A DNA stretch of 64,000 bases from Protula sp. h YS-2021 (taxonomy: Eukaryota > Annelida > Polychaeta > Sabellida > Serpulidae). The stretch lies in assembly GCA_949752745.1 (NCBI GenBank), contig OX457024.1, forward strand, positions 107,657,692 through 107,721,691, written 5' to 3'. The notes below the pieces were generated by a model that was given only the letters and a program-made list of their open reading frames with translations, did no database searches and was not told where the DNA came from. Below, piece after piece: positions 12,091-61,600 of the stretch (position 1 is the first letter of the stretch; each line of letters opens with the position of its first letter). The position numbers were made by a program, and so were the translations under genes.

Positions 12091-12092
12091 GA

Positions 12093-14505: not shown

Positions 14506-14514
14506 TGAATACAA

Positions 14515-20395: not shown

Positions 20396-20595
20396 NNNNN
20401 NNNNNNNNNNNNNNNNNNNNNNNNNNNNNNNNNNNNNNNNNNNNNNNNNNNNNNNNNNNNNNNNNNNNNNNNNNNNNNNNNNNNNNNNNNNNNNNNNNNN
20501 NNNNNNNNNNNNNNNNNNNNNNNNNNNNNNNNNNNNNNNNNNNNNNNNNNNNNNNNNNNNNNNNNNNNNNNNNNNNNNNNNNNNNNNNNNNNNNN
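20396..20595. other. Assembly gap (200 N)
   Basis: A run of exactly 200 Ns, typical of a gap of unknown true size. Missing KATNAL2 exons could lie here. Confidence 0.99.
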
Positions 20596-21695: not shown

Positions 21696-21959
21696 CCAAG
21701 GACAAAGTCCCAGCTTACGAAAAGCAATAAGACCCAATTCCAGCGTGCATGAGTAAGGGAATTTTCCTGAAAAATTGGGCTTCAAAAGATGAGACGGCAA
21801 AGAGCTAGCCCAATAATTAATTTAGCACCGGACCAGAACATAGACCGATAAATGCATACAAAGATTTCTTTCCCAGAAAAATGGGAAACAGATTTTTTGT
21901 ATCTCTGGTAGACTGGATAGTCTGCCATAGATACCTTCAAACAACACTCGCATTTCGGA

Positions 21960-27046: not shown

Positions 27047-27229
27047 TCATCCTTTAGTGTCATTTTTCTCCGCTTTTTGGCGCAACCATTTATCACAGAT
27101 ATGCTTGACTGCACTTTGGCCCAGTAATTCTGCCTTTTGAGCAATGGCCTTGACCACATCCACGCGCTGGGTTTTCACCGCAATGAGGTAAGCCGATTTC
27201 AATTTATTGCATTGCATGTATGCATTTAT
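27047..27229 (-). CDS. ZFYVE26: ZFYVE26 last exon e45 with stop codon
   Basis: 60 codons plus TGA. INAYMQCNKLKSAYLIAVK matches human VRAYLICCKLRSAYLIAVK, and VKHICDKWLRQKAEKN matches VVQDICAQWLLTS. The acceptor is TATGTTTTGCAG. The C-terminus ends within a few residues of the human one. Confidence 0.96.
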   Translation of the reverse strand: MNAYMQCNKLKSAYLIAVKTQRVDVVKAIAQKAELLGQSAVKHICDKWLRQKAEKNDTKG

Positions 27230-30200: not shown

Positions 30201-33200
30201 CACAGCAGTGAGGTGGGAGCTCCACCTGTCCAGCGAGCTGTCGAGGGTAACCATGGCGTCCTGGAGCTTCACAATCTCTCCGCTATGCAAGGCTGGTATC
30301 ACAAGGTTCTCTATGAAAATGTCACTGCTGCATTTCTGAAAGGACGAAGTAAAATGTTGTACTCCCAAACAGCGTTAATTCTTGTGTTTGTGCAAAAACA
30401 AGTGTTAGAAGCTCTTAAAGATTGAAGATTTCCGGAACAAGATTGTCTGTGTCCACTGGTCACTGGAACGCGACATGTGCCAGGGAAACTCCGATGAAGG
30501 CACAAGGATTAACACACCACTAAAACAACGCCGAGAAAAGCGACGAATCAGGATAATACCGTGGGGTAGGCACTTACCTCTCAATGGACGAGTCTCAGCA
30601 CTTACCTCTCAATGGACGAGTCTCAGCACTTACCTCTCAGTGGGCGAGTCTTAGCACTTACTTCCGAGTAGACGAGTCCCAGCACTTACCCCCGAGTAGA
30701 CCAGTCCCAGCACTTACCTCCCATAAGACGAGTCCCAGCACTTACGTCCGAGTAGACGAGTCCCAGCACTTACCTCCGAGTAGACGAGTCCCAGCACTGA
30801 CCTCCGAGTTGACGAGCCATAGCACTTACCCCCACCCACCAAGTAGACAAGTTCCAGCACTTATTCCCCGAGTAGACGAGTCCCAGCACTTACCCCCGAG
30901 TACACGAGTCCCAGCACTTACCCCCCCCCCCCCTCCCCCACCGGAATATGAGTACCAGCACTTACCTCCGAGTAGACGAGTCCCAGCGCTTTCACGTAGA
31001 GCCCGCGGCGCTGATAGAAATTCAGCAGACTGGCGTACGTGCCGTACGTGCGCAGGTAGTACAGACACTCCTGCATGCACGTGCTTTCCAGCGCATCGTC
31101 ATCGTGCGCGCCGGGCACCTGCTCGAAAAACAGACCCGGATGTAAACAAAAACAATGACATGTGATGCCATTTTCGCCCATCACATTATTCAGTACACGC
31201 TGATTGCGAAAGATCACGCTCTCACAGCCTTGAGACAATCCGTCGCCAATACGCCCCCCCCCCCCCCAGCCCGCCCCTCCCAACCCACCCCGACCCGCCA
31301 ACATGCAACACACAGGAAATGACAATATCACACACACATCAAAAACATATCAAATGCCACCAGGAGAAATCAATAACCATTTCATTTTTACAAAGCGTTC
31401 AGACACATCCCCTCCTCGCCCCTCTCACTAATTTTCGCACCATCCTTCGAACATTCCTGCTTATCTGTCAATCCTGTGACACAAGATTTAATGGCATCTT
31501 ACTTGTGGTTCAGCCAGGAGATCTTTCACAGATTTCAGCTGTGTTAGAAGTCCAGCAGTCTGTAATGAGAAAGCAACCCGTTTATACGCCACTCCTCATC
31601 TGGTATACAAGAAAACGACTGCATGCGGAAACTTTATTACACAAGAAAACGACTGCATGCGGAAACGTTTCACGGTGTTTCTCGTCTTTCTTCTTTAAAT
31701 GAATGAAATATTTAATAGGGTGCGCAAATCACAAGATACCCAGACTGTCAAATTCTCTCCTAGCACAGGAGCTTATATTTTATGGTATGGTGTAGATTCA
31801 AGATCTTACGGTATGATGAAGAGCTCAGATTTTACGATATGGTGTAGATATTTAGATTTTACGGTATGGTGTAATACTTAGATTTTACGGCATGGTGTAG
31901 AGCTTAGATTTTAGGGTATGTTGTGCATCTCAGATTTTGCGGTATGGTGTACAGCTCCGATTTGACGGTATGGTGTAGAGCTTAGATTTTAAGGCATGGT
32001 GTCCAGCTCAGATTTTACAGTATGGTGTACAGCCCAGATTTTACGATATGGTGTAGAGCTTAGATTTTACGGTATGGTGTACAGCCCAGATTTTACGGTA
32101 TGGTGTAGAGCTTAGATTTTACGGCATGGTGTACAGCTCAGATTTTACGATATGGTGTAGAGCTTAGATTTTACGGTATGGTGTACAGCCCAGATTTTAC
32201 GATATGGTGTAGAGCTTAGATTTTACGGTATGGTGTACAGCCCAGATTTTACGGTATGGTGTAGAGCTTAGATTTTACGGCATGGTGTACAGCTCAGATT
32301 TTACGATATGGTGTAGAGCTTAGATTTTACGGTATGGTGTACAGCTCAGATTTTACGATATGGTGTAGAGCTTAGATTTTACGGTATGGTGTACAGCCCA
32401 GATTTTACGGTATGGTGTAGAGCTTAGATTTTACGGCATGGTGTCCAGCTCAGATTTTACAGTATGGTGTACAGCTCAGATTTTACGGTATGGTGTAGAG
32501 CTTAGATTTTACGGTATGGTGTACAGCCCAGATTTTACGGTATGGTGTAGAGCTTAGATTTTACGGCATGGTGTAGAGCTTAGATTTTACGGTATGGTGT
32601 ATAGCTTAGATTTTTGTATAGTGTAGAGCTTAAGTTTTACGGTGTGGTGTAGAGCTTAGATTTTACGGTACGGTGTAGAGCTTAGATTTTACGGTATAGT
32701 GTACAGTTCAGATTTTACGGTTTGTTGTGCAGCTCAGATTTTACGGTATGGTGTACAGCTCAAATTTTACGGTATGGTTTAAAGCTTAGATTTTACGTCA
32801 CGGTGTAGAGCTTAGATTTTACGGTATAGTGTATAGCTTAGATTTTACGGCTTTGTGTAGAGCTAAGATTTTTGCGGTATGGTGTAGAGCTTAGATTTTA
32901 CGATATGGTGTAGAGCTTAGATTTTACGATATGGTGTAGAGCTCAGATTTTGCGGTACGGTGTAGAGCTTAGATTTACGGTATGGTTAGAGCTTAGATTT
33001 TACGGTATAGTGTACAGCTCTGATTTTGCGGTATAGTGTACATCTCAGATTTTGCGGTATGGTGTAGAGCTCAGATTTTACGGTATGGCGTAGAGCTTTG
33101 CAACGATCACAGACATTTACTCGCAACTGAAGTAGCCAATTACCATGTCCACGGAAACGACGCTGTTTTCGAGAATTCCGAGAATGTCAGTTAACACCTT

Positions 33201-36200
33201 GGAGCCGCTCTGTGGTTGGTTCTTGTCTAGCGGAGCCTGAAACACCAATCATATAATCCATCACAAACCCTTCGTCAAAAACCAGAGATTCTTCTTGTTC
33301 CTTTTTTATCTTTGGTTGGTTTTTTTTTTTCAAGCAAACTATAGGCACATAACGAGAGTGGTATGCTTGGGGAGGTCCAGTAATATAGATTTAAAAAAAA
33401 AGAAAAAAAAGACCTTCTCCAGAAAAATATTGCGACCAGTTTCCGAAAGATGACAAATAGAACATTTTAGCATTTCTGCTGCGCATCACAAAGTTCCTTA
33501 GTTTATGGACAAAGATTAAAAAATTCGGTAAAATACGGAGTAAGATACGACAGATAAATGCCGGAAACTAGTTTATGAATTCTCCCTCTCCCCCTCTCCC
33601 CGTCCCTCCCCCACCCCTACGTTGTCACAGACGGGGCAGAACATCCAAACCTTCTTTTAGAAGTGCTCGACAATTCCCCTTATCCCCGCCCTCAACCCCC
33701 CCCCCCCCCCCCCTCCTCCACTAATCTCCTCCAAGGTCTACTCCGAAATGCCGCGATACCTTGAGACATCTCGCGAACTTCTCCCTGGCCGCGGGCAGGT
33801 CACCGTAGCACAGAAGCGCCTTGCCCCAGGCCACCCACACCCCGGCCGCGTCAATGCCGCACTTAGTGGAGACGTCCTTGGCCAGCTCCCAGTGCTCGCT
33901 CTCAATCAGTTTATCCCGCAAACGCCTGTGGGGATTACCACGCACACTTCTGTACTGCTGTTAGCATTACCGTAATTTTTTTAAAACCCACGACTATGTC
34001 TATGGATATGCAGTATTTAACTGAAAATTTGAACCGCTTGAAAGAAAATGAAGGCGCCAATAACAAACTTACGGGACAACGAAATGACAAATCAGCACCA
34101 ACTATACCATGGTGGAGAGCCGAGGGATCGAAGACGGGAGTACGGGTGGGGGCTAGGGAAGGGGGGACGGGGGTAGGTGGGGTGGAATTACGTTCAATAA
34201 GAAACTGCTGAGACAAGGAAATGACACACCAGTACCAACTATACCGAGGGATCGGGGGGGGGGGGAGTGGGGGTTGAGGGGGAGGAGGTGAGTGCGAGGA
34301 GATGAGGAGGGGGGCTGGGAAGGAGTGTGGGGGAGGGGGGAGATGAGTGGGGACTAGGGAGGAGTGGAGGAGATGAGTGGGGACTGGGGAAGAGTGGGGG
34401 AGATGAGTGGGGATTAGGGAGGAGTGGGGGGAGATGAGGGGGGCTGGGGAGGAGTGGGGGGAGATGAGTGGGGACTGGGGAGGAGAGGGGGAAATGAGTG
34501 GGGGCTGGAAGGAGAGGGGGAGATGAGCGGGACTGGGAAGGAGTGAGGGGAGATGAGTGGGGCTGGGGAGGAGTGGGGGGAGATGAGGGGGGGCCGGGAA
34601 GGAGTGGGGGAGACGAGTGGGGGCTGGGGGGGACTGGGGGTAGATGAGGGGTTGGGGGACGTGAGCTCTGACCTGAGCACGTCCATGCGTGTCAGCTGCT
34701 GGATGGAGGGAATGTAGGCCACGTTGCTGGCTACGAGCAGATCGACGATCTTCACCCTATCTAGATAGAGCTCGCACTTGCTGATTCCCGTGACGTCACC
34801 GATCCTGTCAAACTTGACCTTGGCGTTAAACAACAGGTTCTTCATCATGCTGTTAATGAATAAAACATGGCGCTTGATCATGGCACTGATTTGTGTTTCA
34901 AAAGAACATCTTTTAAATTAAAAACAGTCTATTCGAACAAGCATAAGACTAACCCGGGACCGCCTTAAAATTGTACAAATGCCATAATGCAGCAGTAATG
35001 ATTGCTCTTTTATTTACATCTACCTGTTTAACATTTAAAGATGATCAATTTTACATTGTTCATCCCGAGAAAACGATCAGTTTTTATTGCACTTCAGACT
35101 TGACAAAAACGTATGTGCAAAGTGTCCCATCTCGGTAAGATCAAATTTTACCTCTCCCTAACGAAGCAATCGGCTCGTGAGCGACATACCTGATTACTAG
35201 ACCATAGTCCACTTCTGGGTTTTTCACCCCGGGAGCGATGGGCTGTAGATACGTGGAGATTTGATCACACATCTGCAGCAACACGTCGCCGCACTGCCTC
35301 GCGTCGCTGTGCAGATCCAGGATGGAGAGACACAAAGACGCGCTCGGCGCCTGGCGCGGAGTAAACAAAAATACAGGTGACATATCACGTGATTCATCAT
35401 GTCAACAAATAACAGACACGTGACATATCACGTGACACATCACGTCAACAAATAAACAAAACACAATGTGACTCATCATGTGACGCATGCCAACAAGCTT
35501 TTAAAGACACAGCACGTCAACAAGTAAACAAGACACTTGACATACCACGTGACGCATCACGTCCACAAGTAAACAAAACACACGTGGCGTATCATGTGAC
35601 GCATCCCGTCGACAAGAAAACAAACACGCGTGACACACCGTGACGCATCATGTGCAAAGCATAGGATCGGTACTTAAAAGTCAATACCAGTGCAATCGTG
35701 TAGTGTAAAAGATAGCTTAACTTTTCAACCAAACTGTTTTAAAATACATAATATCTGCACCGTCTTAACCGCCCAACATGACCAAAAACGAAGAAAGCTC
35801 ACCAAAAGAGTATTCGAAAACATCGTATTCTATTCGACAAAGCATGACGTGTTACATCCACTTCATTTGCCATAATTTTCTAAAAGGAATAGTTATAATT
35901 TTACACACCACAATGTGGTTAACGGGTTGAGTTTATATACAAACATGATCGTAATAGAACTCCTCTCTGGTGTCGTCATTCAGGTTTTCGTCAAGGCTCA
36001 GAATGTACTGGTATTCCACGCCAGTACCCGATAAATGCACGGTACCCTGTCCTGTCAGCTCCAGGTTAGCCGAGCTACCCAGCCGTGACGCACCTGAAAT
36101 AGAGACGCCCTATATTCTACCAATGACACCAGTGCTAGATTCCAACGCAGCCGCTAGCAAACCTCTGTAAGTCTCCTAGCCAAGATAATTGTTTTTATAC

Positions 36201-39200
36201 ACGGCTGAAAAAAGCTCACAAAATATCCAAAAAACATAATTTAATTTTCACTTTGTCAGCGCTGAATATTTAACACACTTGTGCCGCACAGCACTGCCAG
36301 TCTTTTACTCCTTCCAGCATGATGGCCACAAAGTTACCAGTGACTTGACGGTCACCTGCCCTGTGACGTCACGCCACGTGCTTTACCTAGGGACTCGGGA
36401 GAGTCACGTGTCCCTGACAGCGTCTGACGCATGCGCTCTACGCGCTCCTTGCTCGTCAACACCGCAGGCTTCGGCTAGAGGGCGGAAAAAAGAAGAAAAA
36501 CTCACATTTTACTTTCGCCTTTAATAAAAAATTTAAAATTTATAAATTTTCAAGATGTGAGCCGATAAGCAACGAGTAGAGATAAAGACAGATAAGCGGT
36601 GTAATACACAAGTATCTCGCCTAAAAAATTGACTAATATCACCCACATATAAGCTTTTGTTGGGAAAAGAAAATCACTTTTCAATGTTGCCTTCAAAACT
36701 TAGGCAATATCTTCAATGAGGTACATTGTTCTGCAATGCGTTGAGAATGTCTGTGCCTGATTGAGGACAAGGCATTTGCAACATGACAACAACTCCTTTC
36801 AGAGATCATGAATAAGAACTGTTCGTTTATTGAATATAATCTTCTGACATACAGCAGTGAGAACAACTCTCCTTTTACTACTACGGATCTGCCGTGCTTA
36901 AGTAGCTCAAAGCCAGGTTAATCCTAGCGTGGTCAAAACCGCGCCTTCCCATGCTGCTGATTTGGTTAGGGGCCATCCATACAGTACGTACCGACAAACG
37001 TGTCAATTTTTGACAACCCCCCACTCCCCCCCCCCCGTACCCAGTGTGTATGCAGTGACCTAGACCCCTTCCCCTGTACGCACGTACGCAATATATTGTG
37101 CCATATTAAAAAAATATCAATTTATTTTAAAAACTAAAATGCCCATTAATCAGTGACCAAACTGAAAGTGTACATGCCAATATACATTAAAACGGAACCC
37201 TCCATCTCCCCCTTGTACGAAGTGCGTACGCACCGACCGTGACCCCCCCCCCCCCCCCCGCCCCTTCCCCCCTCCCCCTCTCTATGCGTACGTACTTTAT
37301 GGATGATTCCTTAGGGTTAGCTTACGCACTGTGAACCAGAAACACGAAGTTACTCTGCGCTGTTACGTCATTACGATATCGAGGATCGTACACTACGCAA
37401 ATCCTGTGAGTGTTCAAAATGCGGGCTTTACTCAGGATTAAGTTATCAATCCTCTATACTGGAGTGTGCCCGTTGGCGTGGGGGGTGGGGGCAGGGGTTT
37501 TGGGCGGGGTGGGGGGGGGGTACCTTGTAGCTCTGTTGGTAGCAGTCGTCACAGGCCCGCACGGAGCTGCCGCGCACACTTAGCGTCATTGTCGAACATT
37601 CGCTGCAGACGACCCGACCGCAACGCCGGCAGTGGTGGCGTCGGTTGAACATGCTAAACCTCTCCACATTGCAGCACTGGAAATATAAACGCTAAACCTC
37701 TCTACACCGAAGCACTGAAAATGTACGCACTTAAACCTCTCTACGTCGCAGCACTGAAAAAAAAAAAACAATTGCAAACCTCTCTAACGAAACACTGCAA
37801 ATATATGCGCTAAACCTCCCTATTTTGCAGCATAGAATATAAACACCAAACCTCTCCACATTGCATCACTGAAAACGTAAACGCTAACCCCCTCTAAATT
37901 ATAGTACTTTCTAGTGACATCCCCAGCATTTAATTTATGAACGAGGCCTATTCTCACCATACAGACGCTGGCAGCTTGATCGGGGACCCAGTCACTTCTG
38001 TCGGGCGCTTCCGCCGGCATGACGAAGACGGTTGGAAGCCCGTCCTTGACCTGCGCCTCCGGACTGCCCAGAGTGAACCTGGGAGAGCTCCTGGCCGGCA
38101 CGCTGCTCGGGTACGGCTGTGGCGGCGTCGATGCCTTCACTCCTTGATTGGAAAGCTGCCCAAATGACGACACCTAAAAAAGGTTAGCAGAGGCAATGAA
38201 AGATTGTTTCCAGCGGACGGCTAAAGGACAACGGTGTGAGATCTCCCGACCCCCCCCCCCCCCCAACACACAAACACGACATTTTAACCCCCTTGCCCCC
38301 CCCCCTCCCCACACACACACACACATACACACGACACTTTTACCCTCTTGCCTCCCCCTGAATACAAACCCATTGCCTCTCCCACCCCACCCCTCCCCCC
38401 TCCCAACACACACCTTGGGGATCCGGCTAGGGGAGGGTGTTGTTTTCGTCGCCACGGTCACGGCACCTGCCCGGCGGGTCTGCAGCGAGGACATGCTGCC
38501 CAGGGACCTGCTCGTCAGGATGCTCAGCCTCCCACCGCCAGCCACTTCCGGCTGTACGACCGGGAATTCCAGCGCCTTGCGGGCGTAAGTCACGAGCAAC
38601 TGATTGCAGTCCGCCAAGTCCAAATCCAGGGCCACTCTCCCGCCAGACGAGTCACGTGACTGCAGCCTGGCGACAGGAAACGGGGCGCTGATTGGTCCGC
38701 TGTTGGTGGGAGTGTTTGGCTCGTTGCCAGACGAGTCACGTGAATGGAGCCTGGTGACAGGAAACGGGGCGCTGATTGGTCCGCTGTTGGTAGGAGTGTC
38801 TGGCTCGTTGCCACAGTCGTCCGCGGACGTGTGATGCTCCTTGTTAGGTTCATAGTTAGTTGGCGTGTTTGGTTCCGACGATTGATATTTAGCCATTTCG
38901 TCAGTGATGCACCTCAATACCTTTCTCGAGAGATCCACCTGAAAACGGAAGCACGTGTTTTCTTGTTTTCTAATTTGATAAGACTGGATGCCCTTTGCCC
39001 GAGTACACTAAAATGTGGCGGAGAAATAAGGAGATTTCTATTTCAAAGGTTGTGCATGGTTTCCTCAAATATTCAGGCTTTAAAACTGATATAAAACTTG
39101 AATCAACTGAAGTTTTCTATGTTGAAAATAATTAAAAATGTGATATTATATGTCATAAACTGAAACAGATATTGTTCGAGATGAATCTAAACAGTGTGTG

Positions 39201-42200
39201 TCTATATATATATATATATAGTATACATTGATTTCTTTATATTTTATTTTATTTATTTATTTATTTTGCTTTCACTCTGTCCACATAAATCCGCATTTTA
39301 AGGTGATCCAGTGCTAAATTACTATCTCAAAATACAATAACAATATCCACCTGATTTCCGCGCACGCCTTTCTCACAGCGAAGTCAAATACAACTTCTTT
39401 TCATACTGTTGCGGACAAGGCTGACCCCTTCCCCCCCACCCCCCCCCCCCCCTCCCACCCCCATATCGGATCGTCCGCTTTCTGTAATACGACAAATGAG
39501 TACATGCTCCTTCATACCCCCCCGCTCCCGGCATTACAAAATTTTCCACAATACAGCAAATAACACGTACCTCGAACCAGACCCGCCATTTTGTATAATA
39601 CAGCCAATAAGCACCTGTACCTTCCCACCCCGCCACCACTCATCCTCGCATCACACCCATGTGGTACAGTACATACCCCAACATACCCCAACCCCACCAA
39701 TCCCAGTATCACAACCGCCATGTGATATAAATACAAGAACGGGAAGGTACCTTCTTGCCCCAGTCCCCCCTCCCGCCCCCACCCCCAACATCCCACATCA
39801 CAACCGCCATGTGATATAAAACAAGAACGGGAAGGTACCTTCTTGCCCCAGTCCCCCCTCCCGCCCCCACCCCCAACATCCCACATCACAACCGCCATGT
39901 CATATAAATACAAGAACGGGAAGGTACCTTCATGCCCTCCCCCCTCCCCCGCCCCCACCCCCAACATCCCAGCATCACAACCGCCATGTGATATAAAACA
40001 AGAACGGGTACCTTCATGCCCCCCGCCCCCCTCCCGCCCCCACCCCCAACATCCCAGCATCACAACCGCCATGTCATATAAAACAAGAACGGGTACCTTC
40101 ATGCCCTCCCCCCTCCCCCGCCCCCACCCCCAACATCCCAGCATCACAACCGCCATGTGATATAAAACAAGAACGGGTACCTTCATGCCCCCCGCCCCCC
40201 TCCCGCCCCCACCCCCAACATCCCAGCATCACAACCGCCATGTGATATAAAACAAGAACGGGTACCTCCATGCCCCTCGCCCCCGCCCCCACCCCCAACA
40301 TCCCAGCATCACAACCGCCATGTGATACAATAATACAAGAACGGGTACCTTCATGACCTCCCCCCTCCCGCCCCCACCCCCAACATCCCAGCATCACAAC
40401 CGCCATGTCATATAAAACAAGAACGGGTACCTTCATGCACCCCCCCCCCCCCACCCCCAACATCCCAGCATCACAACCGCCATGTCATATAAATACAAGA
40501 ACGGGAAGGTACCTTCATGCCCCCCTCCCCCCTCCCGCCACCACCCCCAACATCCCAGCATCACAACCGCCATGTGATATAAATACAAGAACGGGTACCT
40601 TCATGCCCTCCCCCCTCCCCCCCCCACCCCCAACATCCCAGCATCACAACCGCCATGTGATATAAATACAAGAACGGGTACCTTCATGCCCCCGCCCCCC
40701 CCCCCACCCCCAACATCCCAGCATCACAACCACCATGTGATATAAATACAAGAACGGGTACCTTCATGCCCCCCCCCAACCATCCCACATCACAACCGCC
40801 ATGTGATATAAATACAAGAACGGGTACCTTCATGCCCCCCGCCCCCTCCCCACCCCCAACATCCCAGCATCACAACCACCATGTGATATAAATACAAGAA
40901 CGGGTACCTCCATGCCCCTCGCCCCTCCCCCGCCCCCACCCCCAACCATCCCAGCATCACAACCGCCATGTGATATAACACAAGAACGGGTACCTTCATA
41001 TTCATAATCAGCTGTTCCAGCAGCAGAACGGGTTCCGCGATCACGTGGTCATAATCTGCTTGCATATTTTGCGGCAAACAGCCCAATGCCTTACAGCCTA
41101 TATCCAGCAGCATCAAGCGCTTCATCTCGCCGTCCGCGAGAACTCCACTGAGTTTCCGCATCATAAATTCAGTCAGAATCGAAGTATTTTGTTTGTTTGC
41201 GAACTGGTCGATAAGGCTATAGCACAGCGTTTTACACTCTGCACTACTTTTTGCGTACACCTTCTCAAGGATTTTCATGGCTTCTGTGATTTCTTTCGGA
41301 CTACTTTTCTCCAAGAGAAATTTTATATGCGCTTCATCCACGAGCTGGCTGAACTCGTGATGCCCGTGAATCTCAATCCACTTCCGAGTTAGGTCATGGG
41401 CGCTGACCTTGAGCAAAAACTCGAGAATGACATCGGGAGACGATCTGGAAAGTTCTGCCACTTTCTGCCACATTTTGAGCTGCATTAATACTGAAACAGT
41501 GTGTTGTCTGATGCAGTCGGATATCCCCTCCATCCCCGCGTCGTCTTGACTCGTCTCCTCAATAAAGAACTGGTTCGAATTTGACTCGTAATGTAATTCA
41601 ATTGTCGGGCCAGTATTCAGCTGTGTATCAACGCACTGGCATATCTGCAGTACACATAAACAAAACAACGCACTGGCATATCTGCAGTACACATAAACAA
41701 AACAACGCACTGGCATATCTGCAGTACACATAAACAAAACAACGCACTGGCATATCTGCAGTACACATAAACAAAACAACGCACTGGCATATCTGCAGTA
41801 CACATAAACAAAAACAACGCACTGGAATATCTGCAGTACCCTTAAACAAAAACAAACAGTTTAACTAATCACTGAAATATGTATGTCACTGGCAAAATCT
41901 CAAATCAGGCAGTTTACAAAGTGCCTGAAAATTTCACGTAGTTTGTAAACTGTTCGGTTGGGCCAACCATCTTTTAAATTGCCTAAGTTCCAGGCACTTT
42001 TAGGCAAACTGCCAAATGTTGGAGCCTAAAAGAACCAGGTAGTTTACAAAGATGCTGAAAATGTGAACTGCTTGATTTGAAAGTCTGCCGGTAACACACA
42101 TACACAGTTCGTGAGTGAGCAAGCCTGTTCGCGAACAGTCTGACCAAGAATAAGCAAATTGTTCCAAATAAACTGATAATTTGAACAACTGCGTAAAACA

Positions 42201-43124
42201 GCAGTGATCTGGAAATACTCTAAATCGTTCGTTTCTATATTTTTTTAAAAGAGTTACAAACTATGCACCAAATTATGCACCAATCTTTGGTTAAACTATA
42301 CCTGCATATAAACTTGCATAACATCCAGTTCTTCCAATATGGCCGCTCTCATGACGTCATTTTCACCAATGGCGTGCAGATACTCCTGCAGGTGCCTGAC
42401 ACATGTGAGCGCATCCCACAATTCCAAGCAGCCAATAAGCAGACGACTTCTCGCATTGCCCTCGCACATACCCATGAGAAGTTTCCACACTAAGGCACCG
42501 CCCTCAGGTGCTTGAGAGCTTTCCTCCGCCCCTTCATGCAACTCAGTTTCACTGCCCTTGCTTTGCCTCACGTGATCCAAAATGACACCCTCTGCCGCCC
42601 TGTCTTTAAGGAACACCACCTCGGGATGGGTGCAATTTATCAAAGCAGGGCAGCCTAATAGCAAGTCGCTGAGAACACGCCACTGCTTGCCGCCGATGAG
42701 GCTGCGTAATACGTCACAGATGACGTCACGAAATAAGGCGGAGTTAGGCGAAGCTAGACACAATACTGTGCTGTTAGGAATACTGTGTTTGTCCCAAATA
42801 TCTTCCAAAAATTGAGTATCACATTGGTTTGAGCTGCTGATGGTTGAACACAAGGGTAACACGTGACTGGTCACGTGTGTCCACAAAGCCGGACACGTGC
42901 TCTCCGTCACGCTTCTGACCTTGGCAAGGTCCGAAGCAGACGACGGAATGCTCGAGTTGAACAGAATAGCAAGGTTGGCGAGGACATGGGACTGGCTGTG
43001 CAGGTAGGACTCTACAGCCGGCGTGAGGCTGTAGGCTGAAAAATATATGCAACTAGAGCGGTTGTTTCCACATCAATGAGTACAGGTAGTTCATTGTAAA
43101 ATACACTCATTTCTATTACAACAA

Positions 43125-43163
<39 letters not shown>

Positions 43164-49100: not shown

Positions 49101-52100
49101 GGTGTAATTCACACTGTCTTCGTTTGTTTCGTTTAAATTCCTGCAAACGAAAAAAAAAGTTCCCTCACAATCGCTCCCTTTCTTCATTCCTAATGGCCAA
49201 TTTAATTCTATTCTATTCTGTCAATTCACATAATTTCGGGGGACTCCATTTTGCTCTGATTCTTCACTTGAGTTCCCCGACATTACATAAAACAGTTTGT
49301 GCAGCAAAAGCACCCGCTTTCGCAATCAACAGTGCCCACGCACACGCAGATACACCGTCACTGGCTTACGTCACAACGACGGCCGCTGCCACATGACGTG
49401 ACGTCACTTTTTTGCCGTTTCAACTCGACCAATCGAAACGAACCTTCAGCAGACTGCTGTTCTTAAGTATTTCATCAATCTATTGGAAATAAATATTTCA
49501 ACAAGCCCAGGCTTTTAAATTAAATGTCTGTCTATACTGATTCAGATATGGCTTATCCCGACTCAAGCCTTCCATCCAACCTTTTATCCTGACTTTTCAG
49601 GTTTACAGCCACCAGCTTAGTATTTTGAACATGACGTCATCATGTATTCGTATGACGTCATCACGTATACATATGACGTCATCACGTATACACACCGTGC
49701 GATGAACTAATATACGCAGACGCCATGACGTGTCATAATAAACCCACCCGAGCGTGTGGACAGATCCGAAACCCCTGCCGTAGGCTGGGTAGCACTGGTG
49801 GCACCAGCCTGACAGGCGGGTGCGTAAACAGTGCGCAATGCTAAGGGAGGATTTCTGAGATCAGTCCAAACAAGATTGTCGGCATTATTTTTATTTCATG
49901 ACTTCTTGTGCACTTATATTATCTTATAAATTCTGTTCTATTTTTTTCTGCGGCTCAGTAACACTATGGCGATGTCAAGTACACATTTACAGTACTTGAT
50001 ACTGAAAGCGCGGGAAATATGGCTGTCTTTATCTACTCGTCATAAACACTACATAAATACTATTGTTGTATTTGTAAATAAACAGCTCCTGACTGGTCGA
50101 GAGATGCATAACAAATATGACTGTTACATGGTTCAGCGTGACGTGTTAGGTCAATAAAACGTTTTAAAAAATATTACTAAATACAGCCATATACATTCTT
50201 TTTACCTTAAAAATGTGTGGTTTCGTTCAACATCCGACATCTTTAGAATGTTTGCGAATTGTTCAGAATTCCATAACTCTTTTTAAACTACGCTTTGAAT
50301 ATCCCACCAAACTAATAAATTAAAATAAAATAACCAACCGATTTACAAGCACGAAGCAATGTTTACAACCCATGAACAGTATAGACAGTACTTTTTAGCG
50401 AGTACTGAAGTACTCAAGGCCATGACGAAAACCAACGACGTAGTGGGCGTCAAGTACTGGATGATTGACAACATGGCACGAAATCGTTGATTTAAGCTCC
50501 TGCAGCTATAAAATTGCAACAAAGCAATTATGATACAGTTAGGAGGGTGACATGCAGTTTTATTACTGCGAGTTGGAATGTTACACGAGGCTTGTCCGCC
50601 CTCGGGTGAACAAAAACTACAAGTCACTCGCCCAACTATGCCACAATTGTATACTGTTTCCTTCGTACGCGAACTGGCAACCAGACAAATAAACAAACCG
50701 TGCGATGTACTGTGCGAGGCCACGCTTGTTGCCATCTCTGGCCAGAAACAGCACGAGTTGTTTCAACGCCTGCCTCACACCCGCCCTCGCCGGGGGATTC
50801 CCGTCCGTGGTGAGGCGGCGTCTCGATGTACGTGCTTCTTGTTTCTCAGTCAGATCCAATAATTCTGCACGTGCCTGGAAGCACAATGATAGGAAAAAGC
50901 AAACTGTCGGGACGTTGGTCAGAACAGAGGAGTTGTCACACGGGGGCCACGGTTTTAGAGATCGTGCCAAAACAATTCCACCTTTCTCGGGAACAAAGCA
51001 GTCACATTTTTATGATAAATTTACAATTGTTGCGACTATAGTTCACCTTCTGATAACTTAAAACTAGCAACGGTTTTTTATTCATTTTTTGTTTGTTTTT
51101 TTTTCGTTCATTAAATTTAATTATTTATTGTTATAACGTTACGTTTTTCTTAAAATGCAACCATAATCATGAACAGAGATTTAAAGATTCACACAGATGT
51201 CTCTGTTTTGCTCTAGGGTCCTTGATTAGGTGCAGCCACACAGTCACACACACACACACACAGCCTGGTTGCAGCCACACACCTTGCTGAGTAAATCCTG
51301 CAGCTCCTCATCGAAGGCAGTCTCCATCCTGAAGATATCTGCGCGCAGACTCAGCACCCCGTGTGTAAGCAGGCTATTCGCACCCGACACCAGCGTTGCA
51401 AGCCCGCCTTTCCCTCTCTCAAACCCGCCGTCAATACTCTCCCCTGACTGGCGTCTATTTCGACATAGACTCAGCTGGCCCATGACAGCTGCCATTCCAT
51501 GGAGAAATCCCACAATGCCGCTAACCGGAAGTGGCTGTGAATTTCCCGCGCTTTTGCTCTCCACTCTCTCGTCTGCCACGAGACCTTTTCCGGTGGCACT
51601 CCCGGCAGTTTTACGCATTTCCAACGGCACCAGTTTCAATGCCTGGTCGATCAAGCTATTGGACGAATCAATCGTATTGGAACTGGAACACGCCAGATCT
51701 AAAACAACCATAGCGGGGACCAGCCTTGCGTTGATACTCTCCACAATGCTACTGCACGCAGAGTGTGGCGACACAGACAGAGCTGGCTGGAGACTGAGAC
51801 CCAGCAGCTGGTCCACAGCACTCGTCACCGACACGGAAGCTAAGCCCCTCGCCGCGGTGTTCGCCACATTCGCCAGTGCTGTCTTACCAAACGCCGCCAG
51901 CCCGCCTCGCTTCTGTTCTTCTGAACAACAACAAAAAAACGGAATAAGACAAAACACGGTAATTGCTGCACTTAAACAATCTTGCAAGGGACCTTTACGT
52001 TGACGCTTGGTTCTATTTTATTTCACAACTGTTCAGTTACTCGTTCATGTATTGTTTTTTTTCAGCGAATCAGAAAGCAGCTTACTTTTAGCTTTGGTCA

Positions 52101-55100
52101 GTGGCTTGGTTACAGAGCTCGCATCATGTGACTGGATTTTACTGATAGCGGACCGGAAGTGCTCGGCAAATAGTACTTCCGCTTCCTGTTGGCTGTCCTC
52201 CAGGCTGAACAGCTGCGAAAAAAGTCAAACAGCTATAAGGTAACCAAACAGCTCCAAACGTAACCAAACAGCTCTAGTAAAAGCTGTAAACGTAACAAAA
52301 TCTCCAGAAAAAAATAACAAAATTCTCGGACTTGCAGTACATTGTCATTTGTTCGAGAAAATACAACAGGCAAACTTATATAAACAACCAAGCAACAGAA
52401 ATGTAAAAACAAACGTCAGTGTCCTCAAGGACAAAACCCAAAGACGAGTCCAAAATGGTAATCTTCACAGTGAGGTCCCGTAAAGTAGGCATCCTTATCT
52501 CTTTGGTATTTATTTCTTTTCCTGTAACCTTTAATCCTCTATCGACATGCCGCATGTACCACGCAGTATAAGGTAATTACCTTGACAACCTGCGTTGCCT
52601 GGGCGATTCTACCCCTTCGTAAACACATGGCGAGTAGCGTCTCCTTATCGGCCAGCATGCGGCTCACAATGTCGTCATTCCGCGTGAGAACTCCCCTCAC
52701 GTACGCCCTCTACAACACAAAAACACCTCACGTACGCCCTCTGCAACACAAGAACACCTCACGTACCCCCCCCCCCCCCCACACACACACAACATAAAGC
52801 ACCCCTCCCATAGGCCCTCTGCAACACAGGAACACCTCACGTACCCCCCCCCCCCCCAACACAAAGCACCCCTCACGCACGCCGTCTGCAACACAAAAAC
52901 ACCTCACGCACGCCGTCTGCAACACAAAAACACCTCACGTACGTCCTCTGCAACACAAAAACACCTCACGTACGTCCTCTACAACACAAAAACACCCCCC
53001 GTACGCCCTCTACAACACAAGAACACCTCACGTACGCCATCTACAACACAAAAACACCTCACGTACGCCATCTACAGCACAAAAACACCTCACGTACGCC
53101 CACTACAACACAAAAACACCTCACGTACGCCATCTACAACACAAAAACACCTCACGTACGCCCACTACAACACAAAAACACCTCACGTACGCCATCTACA
53201 ACACAAAAACACCTCACGTACGCCCTCTACAATACAAAAACACCTCAAGTACGCCATCTACAACACAAAAACACCTCACGTACGCCCTCTACAGCACAAA
53301 AGCACCCCTCACGTACGCCGTCTGCAACACAAAAACACCTCATGTACGTCCTCTACAGCACAAAAACACCTCACGTACGCCATCTACAACACAAGAACAC
53401 CCCTCACGTGCACCCTCTACAACACAAAAGCACCTCACGTACGCCGTCTGCAACTAAAAAACACCTCACGTACGTCCTCTACAACACAAAGACACCGTTC
53501 ACGTACGCCCTCTACAATACAAAAACACCCTACAATACAAAAACACTGGCTGTAACCCCATTGTCTGCCTACCTTGCCTCGTCGCTAGAGGCTGCATTTC
53601 CCGTGGTCAGTTTTTTTACCACGTGTATTTACTTGCATTTTTTGTTTATCTTGCCTCGTCGCTAGACACTGCGTTTCCTGTGGTCCGTTTTTTGACCACG
53701 TGTTATTTGTTTACGTTTTGTGTTTACCTTACCTCGCCGCTAGAGCCTTCGTTTCCTGTGGTCAGTTTTTTTTTTTTTTGACCACGTGTTATTTGTTTAC
53801 ATTGTGTGTTTACCTTGCCTCGCCGCGTGGGGCACTGTTTCTTTTTGGTGGGGTTTTTTGACCACGTGTTATTTGTTTACATTTTATGTTTACCTTGCCT
53901 CGCCTCTTGAGGCGGCGTTTCCTGCGCCGGGACAGCGAGCCCTTGGAGTCGTCCGTGGTCGCTGCCTGGCTGTCGCTCGTGTGTCCAGACAGCGAGTCCG
54001 CCATAGCTGTGAACGAAAACCAAAACACCTAACATACCCCTCCTCTTGTGAGACCTCCGACACAGAGGGAGCACCCGACGTACCAACGCGAAAATAGATG
54101 CGCGGTTGACAGTGGGTCACATCTCCCGTTACCAGCATAGCCGCACCACACCCCCCCCCCCCATAAATTCCATGGCGCCCACGCATTTGCACTGGCTGTA
54201 ACCCCTACCATCCGCGGAACCAGCCCTGAATTTTTATAACTAGCCAGTTCCTAACGAAAAAACGCAAGAATAAATAAAGCTCCTTAATTAATGGTTATTA
54301 TTAACTAATTATATGTAGATCTATATATAAACAGCAGAAATATATAGAAATCAATATGTAAATCCATGCACATTTATTTTAAAAGAATGGAATTTTATGG
54401 ATCACATAATTTCAATAAATTATCAAATTGCGGAACATATTTCATTACAATACTGAAATTTACGAGATTACCTACGCCAGTATATGCCCAGGCAAGCAAA
54501 GCGAGGCTTCAAAACCTTTCAATATTCAGTATGACTCAGCAAGATCAAGGAGAAATCGACTTATTGGGACATTTTTTGCAAGAAATAAACCCTTCTTATT
54601 TTACTTCCCTTTTCAATTCTTGTGCGTGCCGTGTGCAAAGTTGTCTTCTTAGACGGAAAATTTGAAAGTTAACTTCTTGCAAAAACGTCTGTTTTCTCAA
54701 TCCTCAATCCGACCGAGTACTCGCACCAAATCGATCCCAACTATTTATTACTCACTACAGCCCTACATGCATAGATATAGAAGCACCCAAGAGCCAATAA
54801 GATCGATCGCAGAGTGACCGCAGTTATTCACATTCCACACAATACAAATGAATTAATACACATCTTAATTGGAGCATATTTAGAAACAATTCATCTCGAG
54901 GAATTTCACGACGGACCGACCGCAGGGTACCACGAATGACCATACCCACTGGACACCATTTGACCCACAGGTAAAAGGGTAATAATTTCCCCTCACGTCT
55001 TTTGAGGGGAAATTTACCATATTGTGTTACTCAGTACGATAGCTACATTTTACATACGACAACATGGTGTTTATACTAAATATTTCTAGACTAACCAGAC

Positions 55101-55588
55101 GAACCAGTCGAGTTTTTTTATTATTTTTGTCAGCGGGGATAGTTGCGACTAGCTGCCAGCAAAAGTTTATTGGTCGACTGATCTCAGATTTAAGATTAAA
55201 AGCCACTTACCAATTCGCACAAGTGGCGTACTGTGAGGCTTAAATTTAAATTCAATCTATTTATATCAAGAAAACCACAACAGTATAATAAAGTGAAGAA
55301 AAAAAATCGCTGTGGGTTAAAACACACACACGTATTACGTACGCTGGCGCTTCTTGCGTTTCTCACACGTTTGCGGAATATCACTTTCATCGCTTGAAGA
55401 CCAATCTAAAAAAACAGAAAGACACGTGACCACTTCCACCGACATTGAAGCTCCATGTGGAAACTCTGAGACCCAGCGCCCTTCATTTGGCAGGAAAGAC
55501 CTGACGCGAAAAGACGTAAAGCGAAACATAAACATATGTTTATGACTTGCCAAACGTTATATCTTTTGTTTGTTTTTGTTTTGTTTTT

Positions 55589-55619
<31 letters not shown>

Positions 55620-58600
55620 TTTTGTTTTTTTTTTAAATTTCAACATTACGTTTTCTCGTCGTTAAAGGTACACATCCCATGTCCAGCAGGTTTTTCAAAA
55701 ACTACGGTGAGGTGTAATTTAAATCCATGTCTCCATTTCTGTGAAACTTCCTTTTGCGGTGCAAGCAGTAAGGTGTCCAAATACATCCCGTAAGCTCAAA
55801 GATGACAGAATAACACCGTTTTGTTTAAAATAAGAATTCTGAAGTAAACAAAAATAAAACATACATTTTTTCATAGGCTTTTCCAGAAACGATAAATGCA
55901 AGGTCGCAGAAATCGAATGAAAGTTAGCCGAGAAAGGAAAATTCTTTCTTTTGGCAAGCGGAGAGTAAACAATTTAATTCATATTCGGTTTTTGTTTTAA
56001 TGTCGGCTGTTCAGTGTTGAATAGCGCACCGAAATTTTAAGACGTTATGAGATATATATCTATATATAATTTTTGTTTTTCATTTCTAAGGCAATAATAC
56101 CAATAATAATACAGGTTCAATAACTAAAATAATGAAGAAGAAATGAAGAAGTTTTGATTTTGTGATGTTCGACTTGTCGTTCCGCTACTCTGGAATAGCC
56201 CACCAAAAATATCTGGTTTCTTATTTTCTTCAGAATTCATATTTTGGACAACACAGTGTTATAACTGAAATACCAGCAAGAAGTTTAAGCTGTTCGCAAG
56301 ATGACGTTAAATTAATACTTGGGAATGTTTTCTTTATCTGACTAAACGGCTGAATGCGACGAAAAAGCGACTACAAGCCACATTATATATGTATGGTCAT
56401 TCTTATGCAAATACTCTGGTCACGTTATGCAACTGTGGTCATTTTATGAAAATAACCTTATCATTTTATGCAAATAATTACGTAAATTTCATTGAAAATG
56501 ATTTGATAACTTTTTACAAATTACTGATCTAACCCCATGAACTGGGCCTAGATATAGCAAAATAATTTTTTTAATATTTTTTTTTTTTCATATGTAATGC
56601 ACATAGTATATGCACATACTATACTTATTTCAAAAATCAACTGCGTGGTGGGGAGTTACATGGGAGGTATAATATATATATTAATGAACGATTGCATACA
56701 ATGACGCTCTCTCTGCCCACATAAATACCTTGTGATCCCAATCTGTGTATCTACCCATTTTTTGTCCGGGTTAAACAACCGTATATTTCAACTTTTGCAG
56801 ATATTTAAAATTATAAATAACTACTTCTTTCAATTTCTTTAGGCGTCTGCTGCAGCCGTTTCTCATAACTGACGACGCATGGTTTTGTATAAATTGATAT
56901 ACATGTTTATAATGAAATCTCCTACGTACTAAGCTACGGGCAGTACACAATGCAGTCAGGAAAAAACCCAAATGAACAATGCATGGTTTTATGTAACAAA
57001 AAGACTTCTATTGAACTGCCAAAGTAGAAAAAACAAAACGATAAGAACTTTTTTTACCCTGTTTAAAAATCGATAAGAAAACTGTCAAATATTTTTTTTT
57101 AAAATATTTTCCACTTGCATTTGCTTTGGTTCTGAGTATAAGAAAATTTGGCAACGTTTCCTCTTTGATTTCTTTCATTTTCTACGTGGTCAGTCTGCAG
57201 TCGAAACGCCAAAATACTTGCGCATTTTATTCGAAAAAAAAACAAGTGTGATCAGGCGTACGACAGCAACTTGTATCGCTTGTATCTCGAACGGACCAAA
57301 TATGAATTTTACAACAATATCAAAGCGTCGTGTTTAAAGATGGGAAAAAACTATGAAATTCTATTCGCACCGCATATATTAGTAGATATAGATTTGTTTA
57401 TATGTAAATAAGCCCGTAAAAAAGAACTAGATGATGCATTCAGCTGTGATGGTGCGAACAGCCAATCTGAAGTCAGGGGTGCACATAAGACCTTCGCATT
57501 TCGCCATGGCGAAGGTGAAATCCATTTGGCGAAGGTGAACAGATTCAACTTTGCCAATTTGGCGAAGGTGAATTTTAGGCAAAATTATTATAATAAAAGC
57601 AAAGTATGTTTTGTTTTTGATTTAGGTGAACGTGAAATGAATGCACAGCTATCCTATTGACAAACGCAAACAGTGACGACGCATATCAATTTATACTTAA
57701 TAACAGATCACCATACCTGCAATAAACATTAAATTACAGTTTTAGTAAGAGGGTTAATCTGGCGAAGGTGAATTCGATTTGGCGAAGGTGAAATGAACGT
57801 CCTTCGCCAAATTGGCGGAGGTAAAATATTCCTTATGTGTACCACTGTGAAGTGCTTCTATTAGCAATAACAACGAGCCTCGTTTCCACTTACCGATGGC
57901 GTCATCATCAGAGCTGGCCTCTTCAGTGAGTCTTGCACTGCTCAGGATTTTACTGAACTGGAACGGTACGAAGTCATGTGACACGAGCTGGAAGCACCAC
58001 AGCGCCTCACTTATATGCTGCGTCAGTGTCACAGCCCGCATTTTCGCCTCTTTCTCCGGGATACTGCACTGCATTGGTGGTGGAGTCTTTCGGCTCACCG
58101 CCCCATCGGGAACCGCGATTTTCACATTGTGACCTTTAGCATTGGAGGACGAAAGCGTGGTGACGTCCGTAGCATCAAGGCACTGCTTGAGCAGGATCAA
58201 GGCATCCCTCATGAAATACTCATTACAGAGGAAGCCACCTCTCTCCCTGACGCCCGCCAAGTTGCTCGCTACACTGGAACCACTAAAATGCCCACTGCGC
58301 GATTCCCTGGCCTCTTTTTCAGACAACCGCTGTTCTTTGGGCTCGTTTTCGGGCTCAGCATCCTTGTTTACATTATTAGTTTTACCTGAAGATTTCTCGT
58401 CGTACATAGTGGCACCAAATAAATCATGGTTTACTTTCTTCTCTGTCCGTCGTAATTCTGTTCCATTTGCATCAGTCCCAAAGGCGGGTGTTTCAAACAG
58501 AGGGGGTGTAATGGGCGAAACAGGGGTCCTACAGACAGGTGTCTCCACACCCAAGCAGCTCTCTCCATACAGAGTCAAGCTAAAGTCGGCGCCATCTTCG

Positions 58601-61600
58601 CCGCTGTCTGACTGCGCATGCGTATTGGCTATGTCCTCTCCCCGTAGAAATAAGAGCGAGAATAAATTCTCCAACATCTCAATACGAAACGGAAAGCTTT
58701 CCAAGGCCATGACGCTGGCTTTAACTTGCTCCAAGAGCTTGATCACGTGCTCGTTGTAGCGGGTCTGCAGTTCTTCCATTTCAGCTGCTGACGCCGTTGA
58801 CGTGGCAACGCTGACGCTGCGAGACATCCGGGTACTTTCTGGCGGCTGTCGGCTATGTGACGTTCTTGACACCTGCCGTGGCTTGCTTCCTGAAACAACG
58901 GCCGTAGATACTTCATCGTTGGACGAGGACACATGGGTACCTCGAGTTCTCAAAGTATCGCATTACTAAGAAACACAAACATAGCAAAGGAGGTAACCCC
59001 GATACAACCGTCCCCATAGTTCAAGGGCAGCTGTACATTTTTCCCTTTTATGATTTCATATTTATTTATCTTTGCTAAATCTTCGCTGCAAAATTATGCC
59101 CAACAATCATTCGTAGGCTGCAGTACATGCTGCTATACACACCACTGACACGTGTTGCCAGAGAAGCTATTCACACAATCATATGTGTTATTTGTGCTAT
59201 CACTCATGTGCCATCACTCGTAATCCACGTGTGTTACCCAGCAATCACTCACTGAGCAGTAACACGTGTTACCTTCACTGACTCACGCCACGTTACCCGA
59301 GCTGTCGTTCACACGTGTCCCCTGCGCTGTCACTCATGCTAACACATGTCGCTCCCTGCATCATCACTCATGCTGCCACACATGTGCCTTGTGATATCAC
59401 TTATGCTGACAGACGTGTTCTCTGTGCTATCACTCCTGCTGACACATGTGTTCACCTTCCTATCACTCATGCTGAGACATGTGCTCCATGTGCTATCACT
59501 CCTGCTGACACATGTGCTCCATGTGCTATCACCCACATTAACACATGTTCCATGCGCTATCACTCATGCTGACAGACGTATTCCCAGTACTAGCACCCAC
59601 ACGGTAACACGCGTTACCTGCACACATGTTACCATCATTTATATGTCGGCACGTGCTGCCTCCCTTACCGTCCATGCGTCACACGTTACCTATCGCTTTA
59701 TCTGCCACACGCGCTACTTACACTATCGCTCACGCTGTACCACGTGTTACCTGAGCAATCATCCAGCTGTAACATGCGTTACCTGAGCGCTCATCCACGC
59801 TGTTACACGTATTACCTGATTCTCCCAAACACGTTGTCCGCGTGTTACCTGCACCACCGCGCGACACGTGTTACCTCATCCAAGCCGTCCTCTTCCACGT
59901 TGCTACACGTGTTACCTGAGCTCTCAGCCACGCCTTTGCACGTGTTACCTCAGCCCTCATCCACGTTGTTACACGTGTTGCCCCAGTCCTCATACACACT
60001 GTTGCACGTGTTACCCGAGCCATCATCCACGCTGTTACACTGTTACCTCAGCCCTCATCCACAGTTACATGTGTTATCTCAGCCCTCATCCACTGTTACA
60101 CGTGTTACCTGAGCCATCTTCCACGCTCTCCGCCCGTAATGTCGTCAACGACGCGGAATCGCCCGCCGAGTAGCTCCCGCTCTGCAGCGACAGTGACGTC
60201 AGTGGGCTCCAGCTGAGCATCTCCATGGAAGCAGTGAGCGCCTCGGTGAAGCATCGTACAGCGCTGAAGGCCTTGAATAATTCCGCGCTGTTCTCTTCTG
60301 GCAGACAGAGTCCATGTGCCGCGCACTCTGCAAGATTGTCATCAAATACACTTCTTCTGATTGAAATAATTCAAGCCTCGAGCTGCTGATAAACAGTGCT
60401 CCCTTTATAGAAAAGATAAGGCGTAAGATCAGCGGTATGACACACTATCTCAAGTTTATGCCACATGAGAAGACCAGATTCCACATGAGAAAACCACTGA
60501 TTTCACATGAGAAAACCACAGATTCCACATGAGAAAACCACAGATTCCACATGAGAAAACCACAGATTCAAGTTAAGTTTGATACAAGCTAACTCAAAAC
60601 TGATCAACACTGAATGCATTAACACGTTATAAAGATATACCGCGTCTAACCTCGTTCTAGCTGCTGAAGGAACTGGAGCACCTGGGAAGGGTCAAGGTCG
60701 CCCAGCGTAGAGCACCTGTGTAGAGCCTGCAGGGCCGAGTACAGCTGTACGCCCGTGTACAACTTGCTGTGTACAGCGTACTGGAATGCCTCCGACTCCG
60801 CCGGCAAAGTGCGTCTGAAACGCCATTGGCTCAAAGATTCAAGGGCAACTTTTTCGCAAGCACGAATGAACCGTGGGATTACTGTATACTGAAGGTGTCA
60901 AACTGACTCCAGACTCTAGCAGCACTCCCCCAACAGTATAGCATTGTAAAATGAACAACATTACTACAGGAAGGATTCGATCGTGCTCACAAATTTCAAA
61001 CGACCTTGACTTATTCGTATTTTTAACACGAATGCACTTCATTATATATTTCTATTTCTTTTCCAGACAATTTTATGTTATTGAGGTCAACTGGACAAAA
61101 AGGCCTAGGGAATTTATGGGCAGCTCTAGCCTGGTTAACGTAAGATGCCGGCATCACTTACCGAGCTACGTCACAGCACGTGTCAAGAAGCCTGGCCTTG
61201 ACCTTCAGTCTCTCACACGCGTCTTTCAGGTCAGACTGTACCTATTTTAAAAAAAATGGTGGCCATTTTCTGGGTCATATAGTTATCAAACACAATTCTA
61301 CATTTGTCAAAAGGTGAGTTTATGAGTTATATCATGAAAATATATACTTACATCTTACTGAGCTCAGCTAGTGTCACATTCAACAACTAACCATAGAATG
61401 ACAGACAGACAAACAGAGAGTCAGCGAGAGAGGGAGAGAGAAAAAAAAGATATATATATATATATTGTAAAGAATAACGTAACTGTGAAAGCATGTTTGA
61501 GAACTCGTGCCTATAATTAGGCACGGCATGCCTTGGGCGGACCGGGTTGACTATGACTATATATATATATATATATATATGTGTAGATACCCTGGACTGT

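What the first reader, a model, noticed from the sequence alone, without database searches (positions are those of the whole stretch)
30570..60125. Splice-junction-seeded minisatellites: eight exon-intron boundaries of one gene have become tandem arrays
In ZFYVE26, seven introns contain a minisatellite whose unit is the splice junction itself (exon edge, splice signal and adjacent intron), starting exactly at the exon. These are the donors of e7, e10, e17, e27 and e38 and the acceptors of e11, e27 and e30. Units range from 28 to about 105 bases and copy numbers from 5 to about 28. The unrelated unit sequences show eight independent events with the same geometry. Either a mechanism favours duplication at splice junctions (for example R-loops, or template switching at transcribed exon edges), or arrays elsewhere are purged and arrays that rebuild a splice site are tolerated because any copy can serve. 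I know of tandem duplication of AGGT as a route to intron gain, but not of recurrent junction arrays within one gene.
Basis: partly seen in the sequence, partly recalled or inferred. Interest (0 to 1): 0.88.

Follow-up and report, generated by a model that had tools for sequence, protein, structure and literature searches.

The report
Repeat arrays seeded at exon edges
In a marine tubeworm, several exon ends of a gene have been copied over and over into the neighbouring intron, a pattern already known as "mirages" in the lancelet, and here it turns up in several genes.

Summary
Eight of 76 modelled ZFYVE26 exon edges (five donors, three acceptors, seven introns) carry minisatellites whose unit contains the exon edge and splice site, all copies in the intron. 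The kind is known: such boundary repeats were named "mirages" in amphioxus (PMC3087553, passages). This genome is not amphioxus: its mitochondrial COX1 is closest, among named hits listed, to serpulid tubeworms. ZFYVE26 is not alone: five more arrays sit among 78 junctions of six myosin stretches chosen without regard to repeats, four in FYVE-anchored stretches. Arrays elsewhere in introns are abundant, not purged. Even so, 13 of 36 straddle a junction, against 3.2 to 6.0 expected from random placement. Inner copies cannot simply serve instead: 4 of 69 with an intact signal would keep an open frame, and the donor motif in copies is no better kept than other parts of the unit. Best reading: frequent short tandem duplications, tolerated at exon edges because the outer copy keeps exon and splice site whole. 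A two- to four-fold excess at junctions is unexplained.

The parts
27110..62513 (-). ZFYVE26 gene as modelled here (38 exons; the first exons lie beyond 62513 and were not modelled)
   Evidence: FYVE and TPR_ZFYVE26 domains; best orthologue hit E 5e-201; 27-29% identity over about 2300 aligned residues with 8 vertebrate orthologues; 7 of 37 introns have a phase mismatch, so small exons are missing or edges wrong there
59731..60127 (-). Donor array at exon end 60109, unit about 33 bases
   Evidence: 15 intronic copies at 19 of 30, some of them in the related array 59310-59571
53570..53921 (-). Donor array at exon end 53894, spacing 77-86 bases
   Evidence: 4 intronic copies
52695..53529 (-). 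Acceptor array at exon start 52709, unit 31 bases, same intron as the previous one
   Evidence: 26 intronic copies at 19 of 30
48159..48273 (-). Donor array at exon end 48259, unit about 42 bases; further copies run down to about 48060
   Evidence: 5 intronic copies; the copy 42 bases on is also in frame and open
41629..41851 (-). Acceptor array at exon start 41644, unit 37 bases
   Evidence: 5 intronic copies
39686..40999 (-). Donor array at exon end 40994, unit about 85 bases, only about 7 bases of exon in the unit
   Evidence: 11 intronic copies
37653..37896 (-). Acceptor array at the start (37676) of the FYVE-finger exon, unit about 38 bases
   Evidence: 5 intronic copies at 19 of 30, 3 at 21 of 30
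30570..30985 (-). Donor array at exon end 30966, unit 28 bases
   Evidence: 10 intronic copies at 19 of 30; TRF gives 30570-30929, the homology reaches the exon
38642..38813 (-). 84-base duplication inside coding exon 38938-38467, a multiple of three; contrast case within an exon

Best explanation
These are mirages: minisatellites grown from a short tandem duplication that happened to span an exon edge. The genome produces tandem duplications of about 20 to 120 bases very often. Where the duplicated block spans a junction, the outermost copy keeps the whole exon and its splice site, so splicing goes on from there, while the inner copies become intron, multiply by slippage or unequal exchange, and drift neutrally. 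The result is a longer intron with decoy splice sites. Shown: geometry, recurrence in other genes, absence of extra constraint on the donor motif of the copies, reading-frame fit of the exon-adjacent copy. Inferred: the duplication and growth steps, and actual splice use.
For: Eight of 76 exon edges, copies only in the intron. The same pattern in other genes on other chromosomes: L014, L018, L019, L021 and L034, L035. Array sizes from 2 copies (L035 acceptor 5948) to 29 intronic copies (L034) are present. Arrays also abound inside introns (22.5% of 30-mers). The junction takes no fixed place in the unit: the exon share runs from 0.08 to 0.80, leaning to the middle (KS against uniform p 0.08, 17 arrays; lengths entered by hand, three of them corrected by eye). 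Two of 17 units are multiples of three (the 53894 spacing varies from 77 to 86), so no frame constraint shows. The donor motif in copies is not better conserved than other phases of the unit (nine of 12 donor arrays; three had too few copies); in three acceptor arrays the site diverges as the rest does. Only 4 of 69 intact intronic copies would keep an open frame. All seven mirage introns are in phase with the exon-adjacent copy (edges came from a phase-aware model, so not fully independent). Eight vertebrate orthologues align without a gap at 40994, 37676, 41644 and 48259, and seven of the eight gap-free around 30966. One array straddles the end of a coding sequence instead of a splice site (L020), which fits 'edge of constrained sequence'.
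Against: Random placement predicts 3.2 to 6.0 straddling arrays where 13 of 36 are seen, so something beyond chance plus tolerance acts, or my null is too simple. At acceptor 52709 the model gives nine residues more than the orthologues, so part of that unit may have become exon. At 48259 the second copy is also in frame, and the automatic model preferred it. At 60109 the protein is too diverged to judge. No RNA was seen.
Confidence: 0.65

Rival explanations
1. A mutational process targets exon-intron junctions, for example DNA damage or template switching at sites of co-transcriptional splicing or R-loops, so duplications start there more often than elsewhere.
For: 13 of 36 arrays straddle a junction against 3.2 (gene-wide) to 5.0 (own-intron) expected, or 4.1 to 6.0 after weighting for G+C. 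The set chosen without regard to repeats alone gives 5 of 12 against 1.4 to 2.4, P 0.006 to 0.04.
Against: The junction takes no fixed place in the unit. Both donors and acceptors are hit. Four of the five blind cases lie in one gene (L035). Four of six myosin stretches have no junction array at all. Non-straddling arrays do not cluster significantly near exon edges (KS p 0.10, 22 arrays).
Confidence: 0.25
2. Selection keeps the copies as spare or decoy splice sites, so that any copy can serve.
For: GT is intact in 112 of 131 intronic donor copies and AG in 33 of 36 acceptor copies (sums over the 14 arrays). A simple comparison shows the donor site less diverged than the rest (p 2e-7). Two inner copies at 48259 and two at 41644 would keep an open frame.
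Against: The simple comparison is biased because copies were found by similarity around the junction. When every phase of the unit is scored the same way, the donor is average (mean rank 0.49, combined p 0.74, nine arrays). In 65 of 69 intact intronic copies of ZFYVE26, use would break the frame or meet a stop.
Confidence: 0.05
3. The introns themselves arose from tandem duplications carrying AG/GT (Rogers-type intron gain), so the arrays are older than the introns.
For: Proposed for amphioxus mirages in PMC3087553 (passages). The nine extra residues at 52709 would fit a moved boundary.
Against: Orthologous protein sequence is continuous at five of seven mirage introns, and arrays of 2 to 3 copies sit at the edges of complete exons (L035). 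Intron positions of relatives were not compared.
Confidence: 0.06
4. Assembly artefact.
For: Tandem arrays are the classic place for assembly error.
Against: Copies differ from one another (mean column divergence 2 to 25%), arrays are short (0.1 to 1.3 kb) and recur in several genes of an assembly with contigs up to 114 Mb.
Confidence: 0.03

Closest known systems
Mirages of amphioxus (Branchiostoma Adh3, globins BflGb6 and BflGb9; also reported for troponin C and PGBD5)
   Same: Minisatellite-like tandem repeats spanning exon-intron boundaries, at 5' or 3' boundaries, many copies with AG/GT signals, units of 10 to 160 bases, splicing reported undisturbed (passages of PMC3087553, and of PMC3902484; the founding paper, Nucl Acids Res 2002, was not held)
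   Different: Here in an animal nearest to serpulid annelids; eight in one gene; density and excess over chance measured; no polymorphism or RNA data
Intron gain by tandem duplication at AG/GT proto-splice sites (Rogers model, cited in the passages of PMC3087553)
   Same: Tandem duplication creates extra splice signals
   Different: Here existing introns appear lengthened; no new intron is shown
Ordinary intronic minisatellites
   Same: Overlapping unit sizes, same introns, 23 of 36 arrays of the test set
   Different: They do not contain an exon edge

Membership tests
Mirage (exon-intron boundary minisatellite) | Tandem repeat whose unit spans an exon-intron boundary, starting at the true junction | tested here: met
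   eight junctions of ZFYVE26, others in L014, L018, L019, L021, L034, L035
Mirage (exon-intron boundary minisatellite) | Occurs at both 5' and 3' splice sites | tested here: met
   12 donors and 5 acceptors among the 17 arrays listed
Mirage (exon-intron boundary minisatellite) | Many but not all copies keep AG/GT | tested here: met
   GT in 112 of 131 donor copies, AG in 33 of 36 acceptor copies, summed over the 14 of 17 arrays with three or more intronic copies
Mirage (exon-intron boundary minisatellite) | Normal splicing from the authentic junction | tested here: inconclusive
   Phase fits in seven of seven introns, 4 of 69 intact inner copies would also fit, orthologue alignments are continuous at five of seven; no RNA available
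Mirage (exon-intron boundary minisatellite) | Length polymorphism and somatic instability | not testable with these tools
   One assembly only, no reads
Mirage (exon-intron boundary minisatellite) | Host is a cephalochordate (all reports found) | tested here: not met
   among named hits listed, COX1 is nearest to Ficopomatus (62%) and Hydroides (58%), both serpulid annelids; a matter of range, not of definition

The most novel reading that the evidence does not exclude
Exon-intron junctions are preferred birthplaces of minisatellites: a process tied to splicing or transcription duplicates the junction itself, independently in lancelets and tubeworms, and so lengthens introns and seeds new splice sites across whole genomes.
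Probability: 0.25. Interest if true: 0.8.

Novelty: new member of a known kind. Interest (0 to 1): 0.52.

Why it matters
The mirages found in print here all come from one chordate lineage. Finding them in an animal nearest to serpulid annelids, dense enough that one gene has eight and 13 of 152 tested junctions carry one, turns them into something that can be counted. The counts give a first test of whether duplication favours splice junctions. They also offer material for how introns lengthen, how the spliceosome picks the right site among dozens of near-identical decoys, and how introns might be gained. Gene finders can misplace exon edges in such genomes, as mine did at 48259.

Tried and rejected
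A naive conservation test made the donor motif of intronic copies look selected (p 2e-7). Scoring all phases of the unit the same way removed it.

A bivalve origin, my first guess from the mitochondrial map, was dropped after the COX1 search. An amphioxus origin, suggested by the mirage literature, was dropped for the same reason.

Two PDB searches of exons gave nothing. A first gene model with a low intron penalty gave 208 exons, many of them false. In one search, L026 was flagged but the "exon" is a 23-base array called as coding; it was dropped from the count. In L014, the further "exons" within the same array were dropped too.

G+C content was tested as the reason for the junction excess: it predicts a 1.3-fold preference only. 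Clustering of non-straddling arrays near exon edges was tested and is not significant. Earthworm metallothionein intron repeats (PMC12783039, passages) are intronic minisatellites; those passages do not place them across boundaries.

In one search the one counted array of L038 was added by hand with an assumed small probability (0.006 or 0.02); a second L038 array and several L037 arrays lie in incomplete introns and were not counted. Some myosin edges (L034 1700, L037 690) are approximations.
Full report
WHAT IS THERE. The window lies at C1:107657692-107721691 of an 863-Mb assembly of 218 contigs. The gene on the minus strand is ZFYVE26: exon 37449-37691 has a FYVE finger and 27450-27752 matches TPR_ZFYVE26. 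The last 1519 residues of the conceptual protein find ZFYVE26 orthologues with E down to 5e-201. A simple splice-and-codon model gave the exons, which I curated by hand to 38; two exon starts (60870, 28650) remain approximations.

ORGANISM. Contig C218 (21.3 kb) is the mitochondrial genome; COX1 was found by family. In the 20.0 kb read, all 22 tRNAs predicted, and the long frames that I recognise as protein genes, are on one strand. Among the 120 COX1 hits listed (of 8000), the best named ones are Ficopomatus enigmaticus (62%) and Hydroides elegans (58% over a longer stretch), both serpulid tubeworms; other named hits are at 59% or less and spread over many phyla. Three unnamed proteins reach 63 to 67%. 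I take the host to be a serpulid annelid; the species is not established.

THE EIGHT ARRAYS. A 30-base window across each of 76 exon edges was compared with the sequence within 2.5 kb. Eight have three or more copies at 21 of 30 matches or better: donors 60109, 53894, 48259, 40994, 30966; acceptors 52709, 41644, 37676. For donors every copy lies downstream, for acceptors every copy lies upstream, that is, always in the intron. Two other edges have one weak hit about 1 kb away; 66 have none. Homology runs 7 to 32 bases into the exon, so the unit does not begin at the exon edge itself.

NOT ONLY ZFYVE26. Twenty 10-kb stretches covering 22 of the 26 FYVE matches show donor arrays at L014 (61 bases, 16 copies), L018 (29 bases, 9), L019 (56 to 66 bases, 3) and L021 (31 bases, 20); one search predicted 41 exons in them. 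Of 44 edge calls made at the 22 FYVE anchors themselves, one (L014) is a mirage; several of those calls are poor. Six myosin stretches, chosen from the 87 matches of a domain search for exon density and without regard to repeats, hold 78 internal junctions with five junction arrays: one in L034, four in L035, none in L033, L036, L037, L038.

IS IT MORE THAN CHANCE? In ZFYVE26 introns 22.5% of 30-mers (n=8611) have three or more local copies, against 0.2% of exonic ones (n=2520) and 8 of 74 junction windows. So arrays are everywhere in introns, and coverage at junctions is lower than inside introns. The better comparison is by seed: an array that spans a junction must have started there. One unit per array is placed at random, with introns collapsed to their length before array growth and at least six bases on either side. 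Then 24 ZFYVE26 arrays give 1.8 (gene-wide) or 2.9 (own intron) expected spans; 8 are seen. Twelve myosin arrays give 1.4 or 2.1; 5 are seen. Pooled: 13 of 36 against 3.2 or 5.0, P = 3e-6 or 1e-4; with weighting for G+C 4.1 or 6.0, P = 4e-5 or 1e-3. One to three of the 16 non-straddling ZFYVE26 arrays continue a junction array (for example the 31-base array 52695-53529, split in two by TRF); merging them would raise the excess. ZFYVE26 was selected for being striking. The blind set alone gives P between 0.006 and 0.04, and four of its five cases share one gene. I read this as a two- to four-fold excess, likely but not proven.

HOW IT WORKS. (1) Inner copies are mostly unfit as substitutes: of 69 intronic ZFYVE26 copies with an intact GT or AG, 65 would break the frame or meet a stop; the four that would not are two at 48259 and two at 41644. 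The donor motif diverges like other phases of the unit (nine of 12 donor arrays), and in three acceptor arrays the site diverges as the rest does. Units are multiples of three in 2 of 17 cases. (2) The exon-adjacent copy fits. Phase is right in all seven mirage introns, though the edges came from a phase-aware model and at 48259 that model took the second copy. Eight vertebrate orthologues (8 of 120 listed) align gap-free near 40994 (NMK|VD) and 37676, seven of eight near 30966, and without a gap at the junction itself at 41644 and 48259. At 60109 the protein is too diverged to tell, and after 53894/52709 the model has nine residues that orthologues lack, a possible case of array sequence turned exon. 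(3) The series from two copies (L035 acceptor 5948, 98 bases) over three (L035 acceptor 3793, 76 bases) to 29 intronic copies (L034) looks like stepwise growth from one duplication. (4) An 84-base duplication within a coding exon is a multiple of three (38642-38813). (5) In L020 an array straddles a stop codon, with copies of the coding end 114, 221 and 285 bases further on, so the edge need not be a splice site. Together these favour frequent duplication plus tolerance at edges of constrained sequence; the excess over chance leaves room for a junction-directed process.

WHAT IS KNOWN. The kind has a name. PMC3087553 (passages read) describes tandem repeats spanning exon-intron boundaries in amphioxus globin genes and Adh3, calls them mirages, and notes undisturbed splicing, length instability and a possible role in intron gain. 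PMC3902484 (passages read) adds PGBD5 and troponin C. Seven searches of the held library for such arrays showed no report outside cephalochordates; several listings were capped (20 of 43, 10 of 103, 12 of 48), I saw titles and abstract openings only, and most subscription papers are not held, so absence there is weak evidence. PMC13202650 (listing and abstract opening only) reports a 20.6-kb mitochondrial genome for the serpulid Serpula uschakovi, in line with the 21.3 kb here.

LIMITS. No RNA, no reads, no relatives, no annotation. Exons outside the conserved ones are uncertain: 7 of 37 ZFYVE26 introns show a phase mismatch, none of them a mirage intron.

Noticed in passing
L020:4984-5430 (+): Array that straddles the stop codon of a terminal FYVE exon, with copies of the coding end 114, 221 and 285 bases further on; a boundary array without a splice site
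   Followed up: partly
L012, mitochondrial contig C218 about 10818-12635: Two long unassigned open frames share a nearly identical stretch of well over 100 residues, by eye, a tandem duplication in the mitochondrial genome
   Followed up: no
L033:1627-1780 and 1907-2060: Two nearly identical 51-residue myosin-head exons 280 bases apart, a candidate mutually exclusive pair
   Followed up: no
window 12107-14508 and 21952-24133: Large minisatellites, 43 bases x 56 and 51 bases x about 42 (two TRF rows), outside ZFYVE26; a run of 200 N lies near 20390-20600
   Followed up: no
window 62860-62944 and 43884-43967: Short arrays of 21 and 27 bases, both multiples of three, in stretches that may be coding
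   Followed up: no
L035:582-887: 120-base unit repeated 2.6 times that holds a motif like a tRNA B box, perhaps a tRNA-derived short interspersed element (motif recalled, no family search)
   Followed up: no
C11:7267119-7278461 and C74: The same myosin gene matches with equal scores on a chromosome and on a small contig, probably an unmerged second haplotype
   Followed up: no
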